Shown: in pieces, positions 2,542 through 24,949 of the stretch
Position numbering within the stretch: the first letter of the stretch is position 1
Layout of the letters: the number at the start of each line of letters is the position of its first letter
Assembly: GCF_004117075.1 (NCBI RefSeq)
Contig: NZ_CP026721.1
Location: forward strand, 1,922,001-1,986,000
Direction: 5' to 3'
DNA from: Fervidobacterium changbaicum
GTDB lineage: Bacteria; Thermotogota; Thermotogae; Thermotogales; Fervidobacteriaceae
Length of the DNA: 64,000 nucleotides
Made by a program: the position numbers and the translations under genes
Notes under the pieces: model-generated
The model's database searches: none
Told to the model about the DNA's origin: nothing
What the model saw: the letters and a program-made list of their open reading frames with translations, nothing else

Positions 2542-3497
2542 GCGAACTGCTTAATGTTTCAAACCTGACAAAAGTTTACAGGATAGGAAGCCTGATTGGC
2601 GGTATAAAATTGACGGCTGTGGAAAATGCTTCTTTCGATGTGAACAAAGGTGAGGTGTTTACTTTAGCTGGTGAGAGTGGTTGTGGAAAAACTACGGTAG
2701 CTAAGATAATTCTCGGATTTGAAGAACCAACAAGTGGCGAAATTCACTACTTAGGTAATAGAATAGATGTCTTAAAGGACAAGGAGAGAAAGAAACTGTT
2801 CAAACACATACAGGCCGTATTCCAAAATCCTTTTACCACTTTTAATCCCCTCAGAAAAGTTGACTCGTATTTTTACGAGCTACTGAGAAACTTTGGAATT
2901 GCCCAAGACCTTAGTGAAATGAAAAGAATCATCTCGGAGACGTTAGAAGTGGTGGGGATTTCTTATAACGAGTTTGTCGATAAGTATCCGAATGAATTCT
3001 CTGGTGGACAGCTCCAACGAATTTCTATCGCTAGGAGCCTTTTAACTCGTCCAGAATTGTTGGTAGCCGATGAACCGGTATCAATGGTTGACGCATCTTT
3101 GCGAATGTCGATTGTAAACCTGTTTGGAGAATTGGTTGAAAAGTTTGGCATCAGTATCTTGTACATCACACATGATTTAATGACAGCTTACTATTTAGGC
3201 GGCAAAATCGCAATTATGTTCAGAGGAAATATCCTTGAAATGGGCAGTACAAAGCAAGTGCTCACAGAACCGAAGCATCCATACACAAAGCTGCTAATTG
3301 AATCTATTCCCCAACCAAATCCAAGAAAAGCATGGAATTCAAGAATAAAACTGTCAGATCTAGAAGAAGTTGAGTATAAAGCGTCGGGATGTAAGTTCGC
3401 TGGTAGATGCCCGTTTGTTATGGATATCTGTAAGAAAGAAAAACCACCGTATTTTGAGGTGGAAGGTACATTAGTTAAATGTTTTTTATACAAATAG
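2538..3497 (+). CDS. ABC transporter ATP-binding protein, DppF/OppF type
   Basis: This is the second ATPase subunit (319 aa) and the partner of the preceding DppD-like protein. It shows Walker A GESGCGKTT, signature FSGGQLQRISIARSL, Walker B LLVADEP and the C-terminal cysteine-bearing oligopeptide transporter extension (CKFAGRCPFVMDIC). The start is the ATG in the ATGA overlap with dppD, preceded by GGGGGTGG. The glycosidase gene begins 13 nt after its stop, so transport and intracellular sugar cleavage look co-transcribed. Confidence 0.93.
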   Translation: MSELLNVSNLTKVYRIGSLIGGIKLTAVENASFDVNKGEVFTLAGESGCGKTTVAKIILGFEEPTSGEIHYLGNRIDVLKDKERKKLFKHIQAVFQNPFTTFNPLRKVDSYFYELLRNFGIAQDLSEMKRIISETLEVVGISYNEFVDKYPNEFSGGQLQRISIARSLLTRPELLVADEPVSMVDASLRMSIVNLFGELVEKFGISILYITHDLMTAYYLGGKIAIMFRGNILEMGSTKQVLTEPKHPYTKLLIESIPQPNPRKAWNSRIKLSDLEEVEYKASGCKFAGRCPFVMDICKKEKPPYFEVEGTLVKCFLYK

Positions 3498-3510
3498 GGG
3501 GGAAGATGAT

Positions 3511-5832
3511 ATGGAGATTTATAAGGATCCAAGCGCGCCAGTGACTTTGCGAGTTGAAGATTTGCTTTCTAGAATGACTTTGGAAGAAAAAGTTTTTCAG
3601 TTGGGTTCAATTTGGAGCTATGAACTACTGAATGAAGATGGAAGTTTCGACGAGCAAAAAGCATATGAGCTTTTGAAATACGGCATAGGTCAAATTACTA
3701 GGCCAGGCGGTGCTACAAATTTCGAACCTGAACGCGCTGCAGAATTTAGCAATAAAATCCAGAGGTTTCTCATTGAAAACACAAGACTTGGAATACCTGC
3801 TATAATGCACGAAGAATGCTTGACTGGGTACATGGGACTTGGTGGTACAAGTTTTCCGGTACCAATTGCTATGGCAAGTACTTGGGAACCAGAACTGATT
3901 AACAAGGCTGCGTCTGTCATTCGAGATGAACTCAGAACAGTTGGTGCTCACCAAGGTCTTGCACCGGTACTTGATGTTGTTCGGGATCCCAGATGGGGAA
4001 GGGTAGAAGAAACTTTTGGAGAGTCTCCGTATCTTGTGGCAACGATGGGATGCGCTTATATCAACGGCCTACAAGGAAATGACCTAAGAAACGGAGTTAT
4101 TGCAACTGCTAAACATTTTGTTGGTTACGGAGCATCCGAAGGCGGAAGGAACTGGGCACCGACGAATATACCACCTCGTGAATTAAGAGAGGTGTTTCTC
4201 TTACCGTTTGAGGCCGCTGTGAAGATTTCAAAAATCGGTTCAGTGATGAATTCGTACAGTGAAATCGACGGAGTCCCAGTAGCTGCTTCTGAGGAACTCA
4301 TCCGCGATGTGCTTAGAAAGGAATGGGGGTTTGATGGTATAGTTGTTTCCGATTATTTTTCCATAGCACTTTTGTATGAGTATCATAAAATTGCTGAGAC
4401 CAAAGCACAAGCAGCCAAGCTCGCGCTTCAAGCCTCTATCGATGTTGAATTACCCAAGATTGACTGTTACAAGCATCTCGTAGAGTTGGTGAGGGATGGC
4501 AAAATTTCGGAAAGGCTGATAGATGAATCGGTGAGAAGGATCCTAAAGGTTAAGTTCCTGCTTGGATTATTTGATAATCCTTACGTTCGACCGTCGAAGA
4601 TCGTTAAGAATTCTGGACTAGCTCTCGAAATCGCTAGAAAATCTATAGTTCTGCTTAAAAACGATGGTATTCTTCCGCTAAAAAACGAAATGAAAGTTGC
4701 GCTGATAGGACCTAATGCGGAAAGTGTTAGAAATATGTTAGGCGATTATATGTACCTTTCTCACATCAGTGTGATGCTTGAAAATATAAATGAGAATTTC
4801 AATGCTCCGAAATTCAATCTCTCTGGTGTTAAAGAATCGGTAGAGAAAAATATGAGTATGATTAAGAGTTTGAAAACTATATTCGATGAAGAGGGCATAA
4901 AATACATCTACGCTAAGGGTTGCGATGTTCTGGGAACGTCTACCGAAGGATTCAGCAAAGCATTAGAAGCGGTTGAAAAATGTGACGTCGCAGTTGTTGT
5001 GGTCGGTGACAGGTCAGGTTTGACAAAAGACTGCACTACAGGGGAGTCAAGGGATACATCTACTTTAAAACTACCCGGTGTTCAGGAAGAGTTGATTGAC
5101 GCAGTTTCAAATGTGGGTAAGCCTGTGATAGTTGTTTTGATAAGTGGCAGACCATATTCTCTTGCTAAAGTTGTCGATAAAGTGTCGGCTATAGTTCAGG
5201 CATGGTTACCTGGAGAAGCGGGAGCAGAAGCGATATTTGATGTTCTGTATGGGAAGTATAATCCATCTGGAAAGCTTCCTATAACAATTCCGAGAAGTGT
5301 TGGACAGATTCCGCTCTTCCATTATTTTAAACCATCTGGTGGCAGATCAAGCTGGCATGGTGATTATGTTTCCGAGAGTGTCAAACCACTTTTTGAGTTT
5401 GGTTTTGGACTATCGTACACAACCTTTAAGTACAGCGATTTAGAAATCACACCATCGAGAGTAAGTGGTATCGGGACAGTTGAAATTTCTTTAAATGTCG
5501 AGAACAGCGGAGAGCTGTACGGTGAGGAAGTTGTTCAACTCTACATAGGAAGAGAATACGCTTCAGTCACACGCCCTGTGAAAGAGTTAAAGGGATTTGC
5601 AAAAGTTGGTATAAAACCGGGAGAAAAGAGGAAGGTTGTTTTCAAATTGCACACAGAACAGTTGGCGTTTTATGGAATAGATATGAAGCTATGTATCGAA
5701 CCAGGTGTGTACAATGTCATGATTGGTAGTTCGTCTGAAGATATACGACTCCGTGGAACGTTTTCAATAGATGGTGAGAAAATAAAAGTTCCAAATGAAA
5801 GGATATTCTTTACCGAGGTTAAAATTATATAA
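3511..5832 (+). CDS. Glycoside hydrolase family 3, beta-xylosidase or beta-glucosidase
   Basis: This GH3 enzyme (773 aa) removes sugars from the non-reducing end of beta-linked oligosaccharides. The N-terminal barrel carries the substrate-binding KHF at about residues 201-203 and the nucleophile Asp near residue 281 in GIVVSDY. A second alpha/beta domain (about 375-620) and a C-terminal fibronectin-type-III-like domain (about 650-760) follow, the usual order for this class. No signal peptide is seen, so it should be cytoplasmic and act on imported oligosaccharides. It lies between a DppBCDF-type importer and xylA/xylB; Thermotoga maritima has a comparable transporter-GH3 arrangement assigned to xylan use. 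This favours beta-xylosidase, but specificity cannot be read from sequence alone. Confidence 0.9.
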   Translation: MEIYKDPSAPVTLRVEDLLSRMTLEEKVFQLGSIWSYELLNEDGSFDEQKAYELLKYGIGQITRPGGATNFEPERAAEFSNKIQRFLIENTRLGIPAIMHEECLTGYMGLGGTSFPVPIAMASTWEPELINKAASVIRDELRTVGAHQGLAPVLDVVRDPRWGRVEETFGESPYLVATMGCAYINGLQGNDLRNGVIATAKHFVGYGASEGGRNWAPTNIPPRELREVFLLPFEAAVKISKIGSVMNSYSEIDGVPVAASEELIRDVLRKEWGFDGIVVSDYFSIALLYEYHKIAETKAQAAKLALQASIDVELPKIDCYKHLVELVRDGKISERLIDESVRRILKVKFLLGLFDNPYVRPSKIVKNSGLALEIARKSIVLLKNDGILPLKNEMKVALIGPNAESVRNMLGDYMYLSHISVMLENINENFNAPKFNLSGVKESVEKNMSMIKSLKTIFDEEGIKYIYAKGCDVLGTSTEGFSKALEAVEKCDVAVVVVGDRSGLTKDCTTGESRDTSTLKLPGVQEELIDAVSNVGKPVIVVLISGRPYSLAKVVDKVSAIVQAWLPGEAGAEAIFDVLYGKYNPSGKLPITIPRSVGQIPLFHYFKPSGGRSSWHGDYVSESVKPLFEFGFGLSYTTFKYSDLEITPSRVSGIGTVEISLNVENSGELYGEEVVQLYIGREYASVTRPVKELKGFAKVGIKPGEKRKVVFKLHTEQLAFYGIDMKLCIEPGVYNVMIGSSSEDIRLRGTFSIDGEKIKVPNERIFFTEVKII

Positions 5833-5850
5833 CTTTTGGAGGTGGAGACC

Positions 5851-7155
5851 ATGTATTTCGAAGTTGGAAAAATAGTTTATGAAGGACCGGATTCAAAGAA
5901 TCTTTTGAGTTATAAGTTCTATAATCCAGAGGAAGAGGTTTTAGGTAAGAAGATGAAAGAGTGGTTCAAGTTTGCTGTTGCATATTGGCATACTTTTAAC
6001 AGCAGAGGTCAGGATCCATTTGGAGACCCTACATTCAACAGACCGTGGTTCCATAATGATCCAGTGAGCACTTCATTTGCAAAGATCGATGCTTTGTTTG
6101 AATTTTGTGAAAAGACTGGTATAGAGTATTTTACATTTCATGATAGGGATTTGGCACCAGAGGGGCTATCATTGAAAGAATCAAACAAGATTCTCGACAA
6201 AGTGGTTGAGAAGCTTAAGGAATACATGAAGACCAGCAATATCAAATTGTTATGGGGAACGGCTAATTTGTTTTCACACCCAAGATATGCGCAGGGAGCT
6301 GCAACATCACCGAACCCAGATGTGTTTGCCTACGCAGCAGGTCAAGTTAAGAAAATGCTGGATGTTACAAAGGAACTAGGAGGTTTGGGTTATGTTCTGT
6401 GGGGTGGCAGGGAAGGATACGACAACCTTCTACTCACAGATAGCGTACTCGAAGAAAAATTGATGGCTCGCTTTCTACAATTGGTCGTGGAGTACAAAAA
6501 GCAGATAAAGTTCGAAGGAGTTCTAATGATCGAACCAAAACCTAAAGAACCCACAAAACATCAATACGATTTCGACGCTTCAACTGTTCTTCACTTTCTG
6601 CGAAAGTATGGATTATTCGATGAGTTTAAATTAAACATTGAAGCCAACCACGCAACTTTAGCTGGACACACGTTTGCTCACGAGTTGAGGGTTGCTAGAA
6701 TTAATGGAAAACTTGGTAGTATTGATGCGAATAGAGGAGATTTACTGCTTGGTTGGGATACAGATCAATTTCCAACAGATGTTTATGAAACTACTCTGGC
6801 GATGTACGAAGTTATTGAAAATGGTGGGCTTGATTGTGGACTGAACTTTGATGCAAAAGTTAGAAGAGCCTCGACAGATCCGGAAGATTTAATATATGCT
6901 CATGTTAGCAGCATGGACGCGTTTGCCTTGGGTTTGAGGCTTGCTGCTCGGTTACGTGAAGAGATAAAACCTCTCGTGGAGGAAAGGTACGCTGAATATT
7001 ACAGTCGAGAAATAGGTACGAAGATTTTGAATGGTCGGGTTTCGATGCAGGAGTTATCAGACTACGCCGAGAATCTTAAAGATATCACTCTACGGTCGTT
7101 GAAACAAGAGCTAATAGAGATGATAATGAATAACATCATGTTTACCACGAGGTGA
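5851..7155 (+). CDS. xylA: Xylose isomerase (class II)
   Basis: This cytoplasmic enzyme converts D-xylose to D-xylulose using divalent metal ions. At 434 aa it has the class II length. Visible features are the catalytic histidine in FTFHDRD (about residue 97), the WGGREGY motif (about 184-190) and the metal-binding MIEPKPKEP segment with Glu near 228 and Lys near 230. The ATG at 5851 is chosen because GGAGGTGG lies just upstream; an in-frame TTG at 5836 contains that site and is unlikely. The gene follows the GH3 gene by 18 nt and precedes xylulokinase by 4 nt, so it is in the pentose operon. Confidence 0.97.
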   Translation: MYFEVGKIVYEGPDSKNLLSYKFYNPEEEVLGKKMKEWFKFAVAYWHTFNSRGQDPFGDPTFNRPWFHNDPVSTSFAKIDALFEFCEKTGIEYFTFHDRDLAPEGLSLKESNKILDKVVEKLKEYMKTSNIKLLWGTANLFSHPRYAQGAATSPNPDVFAYAAGQVKKMLDVTKELGGLGYVLWGGREGYDNLLLTDSVLEEKLMARFLQLVVEYKKQIKFEGVLMIEPKPKEPTKHQYDFDASTVLHFLRKYGLFDEFKLNIEANHATLAGHTFAHELRVARINGKLGSIDANRGDLLLGWDTDQFPTDVYETTLAMYEVIENGGLDCGLNFDAKVRRASTDPEDLIYAHVSSMDAFALGLRLAARLREEIKPLVEERYAEYYSREIGTKILNGRVSMQELSDYAENLKDITLRSLKQELIEMIMNNIMFTTR

Positions 7156-7159
7156 AACT

Positions 7160-8650
7160 ATGGAAAACATTTGTGTTGTTGGTCTTGACATTGGCACAAC
7201 GTCGATAAAAGGTATCTTAGTGGATGAAGCTGGAAAAGTCCTTGAAAGAGCTGAGTACCCTATTAAACTTGTTGCACCGAACCCGGGATGGGCGGAGGAA
7301 AATCCTGAAGATTGGTGGAACGGAACATTGATAGTTCTAAAAAAGCTCAGTGCTTTTGCAAAGGAACAAAATCTAAAGATAAGAGCAATTTCAACAAGTG
7401 GCCAGATGCATAGTCTTGTTGCCATCGACAAAGATGGTAATCCACTTCATAATTCCATACTTTGGTGTGATCAACGAACAAGTGCTGAATGCGATGAAAT
7501 AACACAGAAAATTGGCGGAAGAAAAACGGCTTTGGAAATAACGGGAAATCCAATACTGACAGGATTCACTGCAGGAAAAATTCTGTGGCTTTTAAAACAT
7601 GAACCTGAAATCTTCCACAAGACATACAAATTCCTCTTGCCAAAAGATTTCATCAATTTCAAGATGACGAACGAGATTGTTACGGAACATTCTGATGCTT
7701 CAGGAACAGCTATGTACGATGTAAGAACAAGAAGCTGGAGTAACACTATCCTAGGTATTCTGAACATAGATGACTCAAAGCTTCCGAAGATAGTCAATTC
7801 AAACTCCATAGTCGGAACTATATCACATAAAATAGCGTCTGAATTAAACCTCGAAAATAACACAATTGTAGTTGCTGGTGGAGCAGATAACGCTTGTGCA
7901 GCACTTGGAATTGGTGTTACAGTTCCAGATACTGCAATGATAAGTGTTGGGACATCAGGCACGGTGCTAGTACCAACGTTCAAAAATGAACCAGACGAAG
8001 ATGGCAAAGTTCATTTATTTTCTCATGTTGTAAACAATGTTAATTACTACATGGGGGTAATGCTTTCAGCCACGAATTCCGTAGAATGGTTCAATAAGAT
8101 CGTAAACTTCAACGAATATGATATAATAAATGCCGAAGTTGATAAAATACCAATTGGTGCACGAGGACTTTTCTTCCTACCTTATCTTAACGGTGAACGA
8201 ACACCACACAATGACCCTAACGCAAGAGGTGTAATTTTCGGCCTGAGTTCGGCTCATAATCGCTTTGATATTTACCGCGCAATCTTTGAAGGAGTTGGTT
8301 ACGGTCTAAAAGATTGCTTTGTGAGTTTGAAATCAAGCGGCATAAGAGAAATTAGAATCACTGGCGGTGGTTCAAAAAGTAAAGTCTGGGTGAAAATGAT
8401 AGCTGATATACTTGGGAATAGAATTGTAAAGGTGTCAAGTACCGAGGGAGCAGCGTATGGAGCGGCCATCCTGGCTTTTTCTGCACTGACGGGAATTGAA
8501 CCTTCGGGTATCTCAAACAAGTGGATTTCGGTTGTCGAATCATTTGTGCCCGATGAAGAAAATTCGAAAAAATACGAAAAAAACTATGTTATTTTTGGAC
8601 AACTATACAACCTTTTAAAGGAATTGTTTGGAAGAATTGACAAAGGCTGA
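7160..8650 (+). CDS. xylB: Xylulokinase (FGGY family)
   Basis: This kinase phosphorylates D-xylulose to xylulose 5-phosphate, feeding the pentose phosphate pathway. It has 496 aa, the FGGY-family length. The N-terminal phosphate-binding loop is GLDIGTTSIKG, and the xylulokinase-type SGQMHSLV motif lies at about residues 80-87. The C-terminal ATP-binding segment contains ITGGGSKSKVW. It starts 4 nt after the xylA stop behind an AGGTGA ribosome-binding site. Other FGGY kinases are possible from sequence alone, but the xylA neighbour and the GQMH motif make xylulokinase the best call. Confidence 0.94.
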   Translation: MENICVVGLDIGTTSIKGILVDEAGKVLERAEYPIKLVAPNPGWAEENPEDWWNGTLIVLKKLSAFAKEQNLKIRAISTSGQMHSLVAIDKDGNPLHNSILWCDQRTSAECDEITQKIGGRKTALEITGNPILTGFTAGKILWLLKHEPEIFHKTYKFLLPKDFINFKMTNEIVTEHSDASGTAMYDVRTRSWSNTILGILNIDDSKLPKIVNSNSIVGTISHKIASELNLENNTIVVAGGADNACAALGIGVTVPDTAMISVGTSGTVLVPTFKNEPDEDGKVHLFSHVVNNVNYYMGVMLSATNSVEWFNKIVNFNEYDIINAEVDKIPIGARGLFFLPYLNGERTPHNDPNARGVIFGLSSAHNRFDIYRAIFEGVGYGLKDCFVSLKSSGIREIRITGGGSKSKVWVKMIADILGNRIVKVSSTEGAAYGAAILAFSALTGIEPSGISNKWISVVESFVPDEENSKKYEKNYVIFGQLYNLLKELFGRIDKG

Positions 8651-8676
8651 CAGTACGATTAATTGGGGTGATTAGT

Positions 8677-9813
8677 TTGTCGATAAGCAAGTATGACAGT
8701 AGCAACATAAAGATATTGAACAAGAAGATTATTTTAAGACTGATACATAGAAGGAACCCTATTTCAAGGAACGACATAGCTAGACTCACGGGGCTGAAGG
8801 CAAGCAGTGTTACTAGATTGGTTAATGAAATGATTTTTGAAGGACATATCCTTGAAGCCGGAGTGATCGAAAGTGAATCACCTGGCAGAAAGAAAATATC
8901 TCTTAGAATAAACCCAGAATATCGCATTTCTTTACTTTTTGATGTTGGAGTTACCTATTCAACGGTAGCATTGGGGTACTATGATGGGTCTGTTAGAGTA
9001 GTGGAATCATTCAGAACACCCAAGAACTATGTGGACTTTTTTAAACTTGTGCAGAATTACTTCAACAATCTGTCGTTACGGTACAACCACTCTCTTGTTT
9101 TGCTATCCATCCCTGGAATGGTTGATACGGATAACGGAATAATAATCAACGCACCTAACTTGGGTTGGAGAGATGTCAGAATTAAGAATTATCTGGATTT
9201 AGAAGTACCTATTATAGCGGATAACGAAGCAAATCTTTCGGTTCTTGCTGAAAAGTATTATTCTAAGGCTTTAATCAACATGAGCAATCTTGTTTTTATA
9301 TTAGTGAGAGAAGGCGTAGGAACAGGCCTTATGATAGATGGAAAACTATACCGCGGAAAGTTTTTCTCAGCTGGAGAATTCGGACATATGACCGTCGATA
9401 TATCTTCGGATGAGTTATGCCATTGTGGCAAGACTGGCTGTTGGGAATTGTATTCCTCGATTAGGTACGCACTTCGAAGAGCGCGTAGGGAACTGAACTT
9501 CCACGAAGAAGATTTTAATAAACTCAAGACCATGCCAGAGGCGAAATTTATTCTACTAGATATGGCATCCAATATTGCTGAAGGTATCGTCAATATCATA
9601 AATGCAGTAAACCCAGAAGCTGTAATCTTGGGTGGAGAAATCAGCGATATGCCTGCTTATTTTTACCAACGTTTGATAAGTATCGTTAGAAAAAAAGCTC
9701 TGAAACCAGCATCTACAAAAGTGGTAGTTATTCCTTCAATTTTCAAAAATGTAAGTTCGAACCTTATAGGTGCAAGTATTTGCGCAATTGAATACATAAT
9801 CGATAATATTTGA
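8677..9813 (+). CDS. ROK-family transcriptional regulator, XylR-like
   Basis: This is a 378-aa repressor-type ROK protein. A winged helix-turn-helix lies at the N-terminus (about residues 15-65, with ISRNDIARLTGLKASSVTRLV). It is followed by a sugar-kinase-like ROK domain with the zinc-binding cysteine motif CHCGKTGCWE and a C-terminal GGEIS segment. I chose the TTG at 8677 because GGGGTGA lies five bases upstream; the GTG at 8668 is itself part of that site. It closes the pentose gene set and presumably senses xylose or a related sugar to control the operon, although the operator is outside the window or not recognisable. The assignment to xylose is from context. Confidence 0.88.
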   Translation: MSISKYDSSNIKILNKKIILRLIHRRNPISRNDIARLTGLKASSVTRLVNEMIFEGHILEAGVIESESPGRKKISLRINPEYRISLLFDVGVTYSTVALGYYDGSVRVVESFRTPKNYVDFFKLVQNYFNNLSLRYNHSLVLLSIPGMVDTDNGIIINAPNLGWRDVRIKNYLDLEVPIIADNEANLSVLAEKYYSKALINMSNLVFILVREGVGTGLMIDGKLYRGKFFSAGEFGHMTVDISSDELCHCGKTGCWELYSSIRYALRRARRELNFHEEDFNKLKTMPEAKFILLDMASNIAEGIVNIINAVNPEAVILGGEISDMPAYFYQRLISIVRKKALKPASTKVVVIPSIFKNVSSNLIGASICAIEYIIDNI

Positions 9814-9847
9814 TAGAGCCAAGCTTCAGTTGTTAGAGCGAAGATTC

Positions 9848-9876
9848 TTGACACACTAAAAAGTGTATGGTAAAAT
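9848..9876 (+). promoter_or_regulatory. Sigma-70-type promoter for the tRNA pair
   Basis: A perfect TTGACA -35 element (9848-9853) and a TAAAAT -10 element (9871-9876) are separated by exactly 17 bases. Transcription should start near 9883, about 20 bases before the first tRNA. It is the best match to the housekeeping promoter consensus in the window, as expected for a stable-RNA unit. Confidence 0.85.
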
Positions 9877-9901
9877 CGTACCGCTGTTTGAGAAAAAGTG
9901 T

Positions 9902-9977
9902 GGCGGCGTAGCTCAGTGGCTAGAGCAGATGATTCATAATCATCGTGTCGAGGGTTCGAGTCCCTCCGCCGCCACCA
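9902..9977 (+). tRNA. tRNA-Met (CAT), elongator type
   Basis: The 76-nt cloverleaf has a fully paired acceptor stem (GGCGGCG with CGCCGCC), discriminator A and an encoded CCA. The anticodon stem is GATGA/TCATC around loop TTCATAA, giving anticodon CAT. The first acceptor pair is G-C, unlike initiator tRNAs, which have an unpaired first position. The anticodon could also belong to the tRNA-Ile whose C34 is modified to lysidine. The GTAGCTC start of the D arm fits elongator Met better, but this is not proved. Confidence 0.9.
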
Positions 9978-10002
9978 GTTTTTTTAAGTTTTCAGGCTTC
10001 GA

Positions 10003-10078
10003 GCCAGCGTAGCTCAACCGGTAGAGCGACGCATTCGTAATGCGCAGGTTGAGGGTTCGAGTCCCTCCGCTGGCTCCA
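10003..10078 (+). tRNA. tRNA-Thr (CGT)
   Basis: The 76-nt cloverleaf has acceptor stem GCCAGCG/CGCTGGC, discriminator T and an encoded CCA. Anticodon loop TTCGTAA gives CGT, which reads ACG threonine codons. Position 27-43 of the anticodon stem is an A-C mismatch; the other four pairs are Watson-Crick. It lies 25 nt after tRNA-Met and shares its promoter. Confidence 0.93.
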
Positions 10079-10106
10079 AAAAATTGAAAATAAAAAACTC
10101 AAGGGC

Positions 10107-10135
10107 GGACTCCGAGGGGAGTCCATATTTTTTTG
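10107..10135 (+). terminator. Rho-independent terminator of the tRNA unit
   Basis: A 7-bp stem GGACTCC/GGAGTCC closes a GAGG loop and is followed by ATATTTTTTTG. It lies 28 nt after tRNA-Thr and ends the tRNA transcript before obgE. Confidence 0.88.
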
Positions 10136-10146
10136 TATTTTGAGTG

Positions 10147-10152
10147 TATAAT
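10147..10152 (+). promoter_or_regulatory. Possible -10 element upstream of obgE
   Basis: A perfect TATAAT hexamer lies about 43 nt before the obgE start, just after the tRNA terminator. No convincing -35 element is present at 16-18 bases, so only the position and the hexamer support it. Confidence 0.4.
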
Positions 10153-10194
10153 ATTCTCGGAAAAGTTTAAGATAGAGGAAGAGGTGTTAAAGGT

Positions 10195-11511
10195 ATGGAA
10201 AAGGTAGGATTCGTCGATGTTGTGGATTTTTATGTAAAAGCAGGTAATGGCGGAAATGGTGCAGCAACGTTTAGGCGGGAAAAGTATGTGCCGTTCGGAG
10301 GACCGGACGGCGGAGATGGTGGAGATGGTGGGTACGTTTTTCTTGTTGCAGACCCAACTATCTCCACGCTTTATCCATTGACTGAGAAGAGAAAGTACTT
10401 TGCAGAGAATGGAGAAAACGGAAGAAAGAAAAAGCAGCACGGCAAGAACGGTAAGGATTTGATTTTACGAGTTCCTGTTGGTACTATCGTGCGTGATTAC
10501 GATACAGGCGAGATTATAGCAGACCTTGACGAGCCTGGGAAATATTGCTGTGTGGCGCGCGGTGGTAAGGGCGGAAGGGGTAATACGCACTTCAAATCCT
10601 CTACAAACCAGGCACCTAAGCTTGCAGAAAAGGGCGCACCCGGTGAAGAGAGACACATACTCTTGGAATTGAAGCTGCTTGCCGATGCAGGCTTGGTTGG
10701 ATATCCAAATGTTGGCAAGAGTTCGATAATCTCGCGCATAAGTAATTCTAAGCCGAAGATAGCCAACTACCATTTCACAACACTGGTTCCGAACCTTGGA
10801 GTAGTTGTTGTTGATAAGCCAGAGAATTCATTTGTGATAGCTGATATTCCCGGACTGATAAAAGGAGCAAGTCAGGGTAAAGGGCTTGGAAACGTCTTTT
10901 TGAGGCACGTTGAGAGGTGTAATTTGATTGTACACGTAGTGGATATAGCAGGCAGTGAAGGAAGAGATCCTATCCAAGATTACTACGATATACGCAAAGA
11001 GCTTGAGTTCTTCAGCCCTGAACTGGCAAGTAAGGAAGAAATCGTTGTTGGGAATAAGTCTGATTTGCTCTCGGAAGACGAGCTGAAATTCAACATCGAG
11101 CGGTTCAAAGAGCAGACAGGTAAGGATGTGCTACCGATTTCAGCTGTAACGGGCTACAACCTCGATACGCTGAAGTACACGGTTTGGGAACGCATAAAGG
11201 AAAGTAGAAAGTTGCTTGCCGAGAAGATAGATATCGACAAAATCGAGTTCGTCAAGCCGGAACCTGTGAAGATATTGCTGCCTGAGAAAGTGGATATTAC
11301 GATAACACGTAACGATAAGGGTGAGTTTGAAGTGCACAGCGAGTATATCTCGACTTATCTTGAAAAGTACAAGAAGGAAGCGAAGTACATGCTTGAAGAT
11401 ATAATCGAGCTCCTCGAGAAGAACGGCCTTGATGAGAAGTTGAGAAAGGCTGGTGCGAAAGATGGAGATACTGTATGGGTTGAAGGAGTTGATTTCATTT
11501 TCAAAGAGTGA
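10195..11511 (+). CDS. obgE: GTPase Obg (CgtA)
   Basis: This conserved ribosome-associated GTPase acts in 50S subunit maturation and stress control. The protein (438 aa) has the glycine-rich Obg fold at residues 1-158 ([19 protein letters not shown], then GGDGGDGG). The GTPase domain has P-loop GYPNVGKSS and switch motifs [10 protein letters not shown] and NKSD. A C-terminal OCT domain ends in [14 protein letters not shown]. The start follows an AGAGGTG ribosome-binding site. The next gene, nadD, begins inside its 3' end. Confidence 0.97.
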
Positions 11512-21449: not shown

Positions 21450-21476
21450 AAAAAAAAGCGGGCCTTTTCTGCCCGC
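21450..21476 (-). terminator. Hairpin terminator read on the - strand, between mnmE and the IS
   Basis: The 6-bp stem GCGGGC/GCCCGC lies 10 nt after the mnmE stop. On the + strand it lacks a T tract. On the - strand it is followed by TTTTTTTATTT, so it should stop leftward transcription, including that of the transposase. Its last base is the first base of the IS target duplication, so the hairpin belongs to the host sequence and predates the insertion. Confidence 0.7.
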
Positions 21477-21483
21477 ATAAAGC
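21476..21483. repeat. Target-site duplication, left copy
   Basis: CATAAAGC directly abuts the left inverted repeat of the IS and recurs exactly at 22543-22550. Eight bases is the duplication length known for IS6-family elements. Confidence 0.85.
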
Positions 21484-21496
21484 GATAGTGTTAACT
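21484..21496. repeat. IS terminal inverted repeat, left
   Basis: GATAGTGTTAACT matches the right end in 12 of 13 positions. The transposase stop codon (TAA on the - strand, 21491-21493) lies inside this repeat. Confidence 0.85.
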
Positions 21497-22441
21497 TGTA
21501 GTGATGAAAGAGTGTAAGTGTGAAAGAATGAGATTGATATTACCATTGTGCGTTTTCCAAAGATTCTTCACTACACAAAATCCTTGAATATATTTCGCTA
21601 AATTCTTCGTATTCTTCAGCCCTCGCTTGAGTCGGAAAAAGTCTTTCAACAATGAAAACTTGGATTCACATTGATTGTTTTTACCGAGCGGTACCACTAC
21701 GTGATTGATATTTCTGAACAACAGCTTTACTGCACTTTCATATGCACCAAGTCCATCAGTAATAAGTTCAATGTTTCTAGGTTTTGAATTACCAAAGAAC
21801 TTCTCGAGCAATACTTTGACTTGTCCCATATCACGATACTTTGAGACATGCCAACAAAGAATTAAGTTAGTTTCGTGATCAACTAATAGCCAAACATAGT
21901 ACTTTTGTTCTTTGAAAACAAGAACAGTTTCATCAGCATGAACTGAGAAAACATTTTCGATGGTAAATGTTGGAAAAAGTACAGAGAATAAAGTACACAA
22001 TTTAATAACCCATTTGTATATGGTGACATGAGATACTTTGATATTAAGAGAATGAGCAAGAGAGCGATAAGACATATTGTGTTTCATATACAAAACGAAA
22101 GCCTTTAAGACGAAAAAGATAGGGAAGCGGAAATATTTAAATTTCTCAGGAATAAGGGTGACTGGTTCGGGGAGGTTAAAAGGTACTCTATCTTTGGTAC
22201 GACAAGCTCTACAACGGAAGACAACGAAAGAGCGACGGACTTTGTAAATTTGCATAGATTTACCACAAGAAGTGCATTTGGGATAAGGGAAAGAGAAGTT
22301 TTTGCGTTTGTGAGAATGGGAGAGTTTGAAAGAATGATGGCAGAGTTTGCAAAGGAATTGTTGGTTACCGTATTTGTCATGACCGTTTTTGTATAAGCTG
22401 GTGGAACCGCATTTTGGACAAGAGAGCGTTGAGTTGTTCAT
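21491..22441 (-). CDS. IS6-like DDE transposase
   Basis: This transposase (316 aa) moves the flanking IS. The N-terminus has two zinc-ribbon-like cysteine pairs (CPKCGSTSLY and CKLCHH) and then two more (CTSCGKS and CRACR). A helix-turn-helix region follows (SYRSLAHSLNIKVSHVTIYKW). The catalytic core shows the DDE residues in VHADETV, ITDGLGAYE and NQCESKFSLLKDFF. The start at 22441 is supported by AAAGGAGGT eight bases upstream; an ORF extension to 22522 has no such site. The gene is intact. It is transcribed against mnmE and the flagellar genes. Confidence 0.9.
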   Translation of the reverse strand: MNNSTLSCPKCGSTSLYKNGHDKYGNQQFLCKLCHHSFKLSHSHKRKNFSFPYPKCTSCGKSMQIYKVRRSFVVFRCRACRTKDRVPFNLPEPVTLIPEKFKYFRFPIFFVLKAFVLYMKHNMSYRSLAHSLNIKVSHVTIYKWVIKLCTLFSVLFPTFTIENVFSVHADETVLVFKEQKYYVWLLVDHETNLILCWHVSKYRDMGQVKVLLEKFFGNSKPRNIELITDGLGAYESAVKLLFRNINHVVVPLGKNNQCESKFSLLKDFFRLKRGLKNTKNLAKYIQGFCVVKNLWKTHNGNINLILSHLHSFITTS

Positions 22442-22493
22442 ATCGGGATACCTCCTTTGTCGAGAGTTGGTTGGGGGGTGTCCCCTCTTTATA

Positions 22494-22522
22494 AGGATAA
22501 TGCGGTTTTTGGAAAGTTTCAA
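22494..22522 (-). promoter_or_regulatory. Candidate transposase promoter
   Basis: Read on the - strand, TTGAAA (22517-22522) and TATCCT (22494-22499) are 17 bases apart just inside the right end of the IS. This is a reasonable housekeeping promoter for the transposase, with an imperfect -10. Confidence 0.5.
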
Positions 22523-22529
22523 TACTTTT

Positions 22530-22542
22530 AGTTAACAGTATC
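22530..22542. repeat. IS terminal inverted repeat, right
   Basis: AGTTAACAGTATC is the inverted copy of the left end with one mismatch; the similarity weakens beyond 13 bases. Confidence 0.85.
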
Positions 22543-22550
22543 CATAAAGC
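22543..22550. repeat. Target-site duplication, right copy
   Basis: CATAAAGC lies immediately after the right inverted repeat and is identical to 21476-21483. Removing the IS and one copy restores the host sequence from the mnmE hairpin into CGTGGGGGG. Confidence 0.85.
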
Positions 22551-22882
22551 CGTGGGGGGTGTATCTCAAGGGGGATAGGGGGTTCTCTGGGAAAAGTCTA
22601 CCACAAGTTGAAAAAATTTGTGTTAAGCTATTGAGCACGTTTGTTATAATATTGCCGAACAAAGTTGTTACGAAATACTTTCCAATAACTCGACCTTTTT
22701 TCTTTGCCCTCTATTATATTAGACCACCAAAGTCTGAAAATCGTTCAAAAGTTTTTTGGAATTTTTTAGAAAATTTAAGAAATAGTTTTGAATAGTGTAT
22801 TTTTGAAACTTGCCAACACATATGACAAAGGAAATTTTTGGCGTCCCAAATTTTAAGTGTATTTTGTTCTTGAGGTGAGAGT
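22551..22882. other. Gene-free stretch between the IS and flhA
   Basis: These 332 bases hold no convincing gene. The left part is rich in G runs on the + strand: G6 at 22554-22559, G5 at 22570-22574, G5 at 22578-22582 and G3 at 22589-22591. The middle has an extended -10 promoter candidate, and the right part is AT-rich and leads to the flhA ribosome-binding site. An open frame at 22559-22795 has no ribosome-binding site or recognisable sequence. Confidence 0.6.
22642..22650 (+). promoter_or_regulatory. Extended -10 promoter candidate upstream of flhA
   Basis: TGT plus a perfect TATAAT forms an extended -10 element about 230 nt before flhA. The -35 region is poor (TGTTAA at 18 bases). It would give a long leader for the flagellar cluster. 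It lies about 100 nt outside the IS, so the insertion leaves it intact. Confidence 0.45.
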
Positions 22883-24949
22883 GTGAAAGCGGACGTTGGT
22901 GTAGCGTTGCTCGTTGTTGCGATAGTGCTCTTGATGATCATACCGATTCCGGACTTTTTACTGGATTTTTTCCAATTGCTGAATATCTCAATTTCTTTGG
23001 TTATACTCTTCTCAACGATGTACATCACTCACGCGCTTGAGCTCGCTTCGTTCCCGACGATGCTGTTGATAGTTACGATATTTCGTCTGGCTTTGAACGT
23101 TGCTTCAACAAGGGCGATTTTGCTTGAATGACCGAAGTTCGGTGGAAAGGTCATTCAGACGTTTGGTAATTTCGTAGTTGGCGGAAACTACGTTGTCGGT
23201 ATTGTTGTATTCTTAATACTTGTTATAATCCAATTCATCGTGATAACGCGCGGTTCTGAGAGGATCGCAGAGGTTGCGGCAAGGTTCACGCTCGATGCGA
23301 TGCCAGGAAAACAGATGAGTGTCGATGCGGATTTGAACGCAGGTTTGATAACGGAAGATGAAGCCAGAAGACGTAGAGAAGAAATCAGACGCGAAGCCGA
23401 TTTTTATGGTGCGATGGATGGTGCTTCAAAATTCGTCCGCGGAGATGCGATAGCAAGTATAATCATCACGCTGGTTAACAGCATAGGTGGTATAATAATC
23501 GGTGTATTGATGCACAGGCTGGGCTTTGCTGATGCTGCAAAGACGTTTCTACTCTACACCGTTGGAGATGGATTGGTATCCCAAATACCAGCGCTGATGG
23601 TATCGACGGCAACGGGCATCATCGTTTCAAGAAGTGCGACTAAGGATAACCTTGGAACTGAGTTGATAAGGGAACTATCGGGAGAGAAGAAGGTTATAAT
23701 ACTAACCGGAGTGGTGATAATCCTCCTTGGATTGTTCACACCTCTGCCTACGTTCACAAGCTTACTCATCGGTGGATTGTTTTTGATCGTCGGTATCATG
23801 ATAAAAGAAGAAGCTAGGCCAGAGGTCCAACCTGGCATAGCTGGAGTTCCCGGTGTTGGAGGTGCACCTCCTGGAGCGGCAGGTGTACCAGCAGGACCTG
23901 TGCTGTCAACACCTGAAGAAGTTGCCGAGGTTTTGCAATCTGACACTGTGGAAATCAACATTGGATACGGTCTTCTACCTCTTGCTGACCTTTCGCAAGG
24001 TGGAGATATGTTGGAACGCTTGACGATGATACGTAGGCAGCTTGCCCAAGAGCTGGGGCTTGTGCTTTCACCTATAAGGGTAAGGGATAGCGTGTTATTG
24101 AAACCAAACGAGTACGCTATCTTCATACGTGGTGCAGAGGTTGCCAGGTACGAGCTATTCCCGAACAGGCTGCTTGCGATTAATCCGGGGTTTGTTACTG
24201 AGCGCATAGCTGGTATAGAGGTAAAAGAACCCGCGTTTGGACTTCAAGCGTTTTGGATAGACGAATCGAAAAGGGATGAGGCTATTCAAAAAGGTTTTAC
24301 CGTTGTTGATCCTCCAACGGTTTTCGCTACGCATGTGACGGAGATTTTGAGAAGGTACGCACCAGAGTTGCTTGGTAACAGAGAGTTTCAGCTCTTGGTT
24401 GATGGTTTGAGAAACAAATTCGATAGATTGGTTGACGAAGTATTCAATGTTGTAAAGCCAACAGTAGTGAAGAAGGTTTTGCAAGAATTATTGAGAGAGG
24501 GCGTGTCGATAAGGAATCTGCCGTTCATATTTGAACTCATTCTTGACAACGCGGAAAGGGCAAGAGATGTAGAAAGTCTGGTAGAATATGTTAGAAGGGG
24601 ATTGAAGAGGCAGATCGCGAGTAAATTGTTAAGTCAAGACAAGCAAATCCACGCAGTTGCGCTTGATAGCGAATTAGAAAGGATGCTTACCGAGTCGATT
24701 TCAGAGAGTGATGAGGGCAGATATCTGAGTGTTAATCCACAGATTATGAGAGAAGTAATAGAGAGAATCTCTCAGGAATTGGAAAAGCTCATGAGGAAAG
24801 GCTATTCGCCGATTCTTATAGTCTCGGGAACGATACGACCTTATCTTGCAAAGATGGTTCTGAGGTTTATCCCTGGAGTTACGGTCATTGCATTTGAGGA
24901 AGTTCCAGAAGATGTCAATCTTTCAATCGAGGGTGTGGTGAGGATATGA
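22883..24949 (+). pseudogene. flhA: Flagellar export protein FlhA, interrupted by an in-frame TGA
   Basis: FlhA is the large membrane component of the flagellar type III export gate. Coding starts at the GTG at 22883 after GAGGTGAGA and runs through the first helices to ...ASTRAILLE. The TGA at 23129-23131 (codon 83) then stops the frame. The same frame continues without any shift as PKFGGKVIQTFGNFVVGGNYVVG, followed by MPGKQMSVDADLNAGLI and the full cytoplasmic domain, 688 codons in all, which is a normal FlhA length. Homologues usually have Gly at about this position, so GGA-to-TGA is the simplest explanation. A proline/glycine-rich linker lies near residues 315-338. It may be a true nonsense mutation, a sequencing error or a read-through site. 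The downstream part alone (ATG at 23240) would lack the first helices. Confidence 0.88.

What the first reader, a model, noticed from the sequence alone, without database searches (positions are those of the whole stretch)
23129..23131. In-frame TGA at codon 83 of flhA in an otherwise intact gene
Seen directly: the frame from 22883 ends in TGA after ...RAILLE, and the very same frame resumes with PKFGGKVIQTF and runs 605 more codons to the normal end. Homologues of FlhA usually have Gly at this position (from memory), and GGA-to-TGA is a single transversion. If real, the export gate is truncated and flagellar assembly should fail, although fliD, flaG, fliA and the chemotaxis genes look intact. 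It could also be read-through or a base-calling error.
Basis: partly seen in the sequence, partly recalled or inferred. Interest (0 to 1): 0.75.

Follow-up and report, generated by a model that had tools for sequence, protein, structure and literature searches.

The report
Recent stop mutation in flhA
A hot-spring bacterium (almost certainly Fervidobacterium changbaicum CBS-1) carries one stop codon early in flhA, a flagellar export-gate gene that is otherwise undamaged; most likely this is a very recent single-base knock-out, a kind of mutation already known elsewhere.

Summary
The frame 22883-24949 (+) is flhA, and codon 83 (23129-23131) is TGA, with 82 sense codons before it, 605 after it and no other lesion. 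All 29 relatives examined have Gly (GGN) there; of 108 wider homologues 89 have Gly and 17 Ala.

The genome is almost certainly F. changbaicum CBS-1, judged by length. Raw reads and sister strains could not be read.

On both sides of the stop flhA is under the same strong purifying selection as neighbouring genes (dN/dS about 0.015), and the 11 other lineage-specific replacements are conservative. The other flagellar and chemotaxis genes checked are intact. So the stop is recent, an error, or read through.

Recoding has no support: no SelB, no tRNA-Sec, no UCA-anticodon tRNA among 48, no unusual mRNA structure, and TGA is an ordinary stop here (51 of 129 genes). No other conserved gene checked carries an internal stop or frameshift, which argues against poor sequence.

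Best reading: a recent flhA nonsense mutation that removes the export gate, perhaps fixed in culture. Equivalent mutations are published for Vibrio cholerae and Brucella melitensis. Low novelty.

In passing: a recent IS insertion upstream splits a conserved candidate small RNA.

The parts
22883..23128 (+). flhA codons 1-82 (first part of the FHIPEP/FlhA protein)
   Evidence: Pfam PF00771 profile 1-69, E 2.3e-23; sequence
23129..23131 (+). in-frame TGA at codon 83, Gly in relatives
23132..24949 (+). flhA codons 84-688 and natural stop, open throughout
   Evidence: PF00771 profile 74-656, E 2.4e-220; same purifying selection as neighbouring genes
21484..22542 (-). IS6/IS240-type insertion element between mnmE and flhA, transposase ORF 21491-22522 (-); six identical copies in the genome
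   Evidence: PF13610 E 3.6e-47; copies; absent at this place in G004 and G008
21476..21483 (.). left 8-bp target duplication CATAAAGC
22543..22550 (.). right 8-bp target duplication CATAAAGC

Best explanation
A real, very recent single-base nonsense mutation in flhA of this strain, probably GGA to TGA. Translation ends after 82 codons, so the FlhA export gate of the flagellar type III secretion apparatus cannot form. The cell should then lack rod, hook and filament although all other flagellar genes checked are intact. It may have been fixed by drift or by selection for loss of motility during isolation and cultivation. Shown: the stop, the conserved Gly in relatives, purifying selection on the whole frame until very recently, intact partner genes, no sign of recoding machinery. 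Inferred: that the base is real in the strain, that termination is efficient, and the non-motile phenotype.
For: Gly in all 29 relatives. dN/dS about 0.015 on both sides of the stop and 11 other lineage-specific changes all conservative, so the lesion is young. No SelB over cut-off, the tRNA-Sec-like matches checked are tRNA-Leu/Ser, no UCA anticodon among 48 tRNAs, TGA a common normal stop (51 of 129), no structured RNA after the stop. No internal stop or frameshift in the other conserved genes compared, which speaks for an accurate sequence. Published parallels: spontaneous flhA Q533* in cultured V. cholerae (PMC10654082); flhA stop in B. melitensis 16M (PMC7410920).
Against: The reading frame and all flagellar partner genes checked are preserved, as they would also be if FlhA were still made. 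Sister strain AW-1 is described as motile with FlhA in its proteome, so motility is not generally lost in the species. No reads, second assembly or phenotype of this strain could be examined.
Confidence: 0.72

Rival explanations
1. Base-calling or assembly error: the strain has an ordinary sense codon and a working flhA.
For: It is one base in one assembly; selection on the frame shows no sign of any inactive period; a sister strain is described as motile.
Against: No other internal stop or frameshift was found in the conserved genes compared, so the error rate is low; the fraction of substitutions that make a stop in flhA is 3.7%.
Confidence: 0.17
2. Read-through: the UGA, followed by C, is leaky enough (for example by near-cognate tRNA-Trp) to give some functional FlhA.
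For: The stop is followed by C, a context known to be leaky in other bacteria (established knowledge, not tested here); the frame beyond is perfectly preserved; suppression of an flhA stop was proposed for B. melitensis 16M (PMC7410920).
Against: No suppressor tRNA, no selenocysteine machinery, no unusual structure; no relative has the stop, so it is not a conserved device.
Confidence: 0.08
3. Split gene: the 569-aa ORF from GTG 23240 is translated on its own and works with or without the 82-aa piece.
For: A mechanical ORF of 569 aa exists at 23240-24949.
Against: No ribosome-binding-like sequence lies before 23240; the ATG that overlaps the TGA is out of frame and closes after 13 codons; no relative has a split gene.
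Confidence: 0.02

Closest known systems
Spontaneous flhA nonsense mutants of Vibrio cholerae in prolonged culture (Q533*, PMC10654082)
   Same: Single-base nonsense change in flhA with the other flagellar genes intact; loss of motility arising in culture
   Different: There the mutation and phenotype were followed by sequencing and microscopy; here only the genome is known, and the stop is much earlier (codon 83)
flhA of Brucella melitensis 16M (premature stop, PMC7410920)
   Same: One-nucleotide substitution making a premature stop in flhA of a type strain
   Different: There several other flagellar genes are broken too, and a flagellum is still reported, with stop suppression proposed; here flhA is the only broken gene found
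flhA of genome G036, same order as the window's genome (L215)
   Same: An otherwise full-length flhA with one in-frame stop (TAA); relatives have Gln (CAG/CAA) there
   Different: Different codon (DAMPGK*MSVDAD) and stop codon, in a fragmented draft genome; it may be an error or an independent mutation

Membership tests
Recent nonsense pseudogene of flhA | In-frame stop where relatives have a sense codon | tested here: met
   TGA against GGN in 29 of 29 relatives
Recent nonsense pseudogene of flhA | Rest of the gene undecayed (recent) | tested here: met
   No further stop or frameshift; dN/dS about 0.015 before and after the stop
Recent nonsense pseudogene of flhA | No full-length product, loss of flagella | not testable with these tools
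   Needs the proteome (PXD054285) or microscopy
Selenocysteine recoding | SelB elongation factor | tested here: not met
   No match over the TIGR00475 cut-off in 21 genomes; best hits are other translation factors below it
Selenocysteine recoding | tRNA-Sec | tested here: not met
   Four best matches in this genome are tRNA-Leu and tRNA-Ser; no UCA anticodon
Selenocysteine recoding | SECIS-like hairpin after the UGA | tested here: not met
   z -1.10 for the 60 bases from the stop, -0.73 for 39 bases after it
UGA reassignment or suppressor tRNA | tRNA with anticodon UCA; TGA not used as a stop | tested here: not met
   48 tRNA places, none UCA; TGA ends 51 of 129 genes

The most novel reading that the evidence does not exclude
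The UGA is read through often enough at high growth temperature to make functional FlhA, so that flagellar export is throttled by a leaky stop rather than lost.
Probability: 0.06. Interest if true: 0.55.

Novelty: new member of a known kind. Interest (0 to 1): 0.22.

Why it matters
If real, the sequenced type strain of F. changbaicum should lack flagella, so motility predicted from its gene list would mislead, and sister strains such as AW-1 would give a natural comparison. It is also a cheap test of stop-codon leakage in a thermophile, because a proteome of the strain is already public. Otherwise it is an ordinary strain-level knock-out.

Tried and rejected
Selenocysteine, suppressor tRNA and general UGA reassignment: no support. 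Reinitiation at GTG 23240 or at the ATG overlapping the TGA: no ribosome site, or out of frame. Wider decay of the flagellar regulon: the genes checked are intact. Frame interruptions flagged proved to be terminal misalignments, genes cut by the edge of a stretch, or spurious antisense ORFs. The genome-contig scan returned no other strain of this species, so AW-1 and H-21 could not be compared. Rfam gives nothing convincing for the small-RNA candidate.

Full report
Observation. The frame from 22883 (+) reads 82 codons to ...STRAILLE, then TGA at 23129-23131, then PKFGGKVIQTFGNFVVGG... for 605 codons to a natural TGA at 24947-24949. Both halves belong to one gene: Pfam FHIPEP matches profile 1-69 in the first and 74-656 of 657 in the second, and solved full-length FlhA structures align with nearly all of the second half.

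What stands there in relatives. In 29 homologues from the genus, family and order, codon 83 is always Gly, written GGA, GGT, GGC or GGG. In 108 homologues, distant phyla included, it is Gly 89 times and Ala 17 times. GGA occurs in five other genomes of the family, so GGA to TGA is a plausible one-step change; the two closest species have GGT, so the ancestral codon is inferred.

Which organism. The genome is one contig of 2,266,349 bases. A published table gives 2,266,449 for F. changbaicum CBS-1, 2,237,377 for F. islandicum AW-1, 2,166,381 for F. pennivorans DSM 9078, 2,061,852 for DYC and 1,948,941 for F. nodosum (PMC9861569). The last three equal G004, G008 and G006 exactly. I therefore take the window to be CBS-1 (CP026721), the 100-base difference probably being a misprint; this is an inference. 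F. changbaicum has since been proposed to belong to F. islandicum (PMC11673897).

How old the stop is. Against G004 flhA has dN 0.034 and dS about 2 (near saturation), a ratio of about 0.015, similar before and after the stop and similar to flgE, flgC, fliM, mnmE and obg. The 11 other replacements specific to this lineage are all conservative (E-D, K-R, Q-R, Q-E, K-R, Y-F, D-E, I-V, K-R, Q-K, V-I). Of all single substitutions in flhA, 3.7% make a stop. With a branch of roughly one neutral substitution per site, about 67 nonsense changes would be expected in the 605 codons if the gene had been free to decay over the whole branch; none is seen, so the free period is below about 5% of it. This bound is my own rough arithmetic.

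Is the rest of the machine intact. Full-length, uninterrupted copies were found of flhF, a MinD-like flhG, cheC, cheD, fliA, flaG, two PilZ-domain genes, fliR, flhB, flgB, flgC, fliE, flgD, flgE, flgF, flgG, flgK, flgL, motA, motB, fliL, fliM, fliY, fliP, fliF and two flagellins. In the window and the flagellar stretches, 119 conserved reading frames aligned to G004 without a stop, and the flagged remainder were not internal lesions. flhA is the only broken conserved gene found. That fits a fresh lesion and argues against a poor sequence.

Recoding. No SelB exceeds the cut-off in any of 21 genomes. The four best tRNA-Sec-like matches in this genome are tRNA-Leu and tRNA-Ser genes. The genome has 48 tRNA matches, and ARAGORN finds no UCA anticodon at these places. 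TGA is a normal stop (51 of 129 genes). The RNA after the stop is no more structured than shuffles (z -1.10). Simple leakage of this UGA-C is not excluded.

Ranking. Recent null mutation 0.72, base error 0.17, leaky read-through 0.08, split gene 0.02. Published parallels are the spontaneous flhA Q533* in cultured V. cholerae (PMC10654082) and the premature stop in flhA of B. melitensis 16M, where suppression was proposed (PMC7410920). AW-1, of the same species, is described as motile (PMC4587914), and FlhA and FlhF are reported in its proteome (PMC13157175), so its flhA is probably intact; its sequence could not be read here. Another paper states that motility had not been reported in fervidobacteria (PMC9861569), so the phenotype of the genus is itself poorly documented.

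Surroundings. An IS6/IS240-type element (21484-22542, 8-bp duplication CATAAAGC) sits between mnmE and flhA. It is absent there in G004 and G008, and six copies in this genome are identical, so it moved recently. The roughly 330 bases between it and flhA remain, so flhA need not have lost its promoter; whether expression changed is unknown. The element splits a strongly conserved candidate minus-strand small RNA, described under things noticed in passing.

Noticed in passing
window 22543-22592 (-), terminator now at 21476-21458 (-); L002-L011, L031: A candidate small RNA on the minus strand between flhA and mnmE: a C-rich stretch (CCCCCTATCCCCCTTGAGATACACCCCCC) unchanged in 10 genomes of the group and with one change in two more loci, followed in the relatives by a G+C-rich hairpin and a T run. 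In this genome the IS lies between the conserved stretch and the terminator, so the RNA would run into the transposase gene. No convincing Rfam match.
   Followed up: partly
window 21484-22542 and elsewhere in G000: The IS upstream of flhA has six identical full-length copies in the genome and more than 20 further full-length relatives at 70-80% identity, a sign of recent IS expansion. A transposase 98.8% identical lies in G004 at another place, L199 687-1718.
   Followed up: partly
L215 (G036:C60:70900-73500): A second Thermotogae-order relative has an in-frame stop in flhA: TAA in DAMPGK*MSVDAD where relatives have CAG or CAA; a draft genome.
   Followed up: partly
L194 about 2900-10300 (G000:C1:1435900-1443300): About 7.5 kb lies between a flagellin-domain gene and the first large flagellin gene, against about 1.8 kb at the corresponding place in G004; the extra stretch was not examined.
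   Followed up: no
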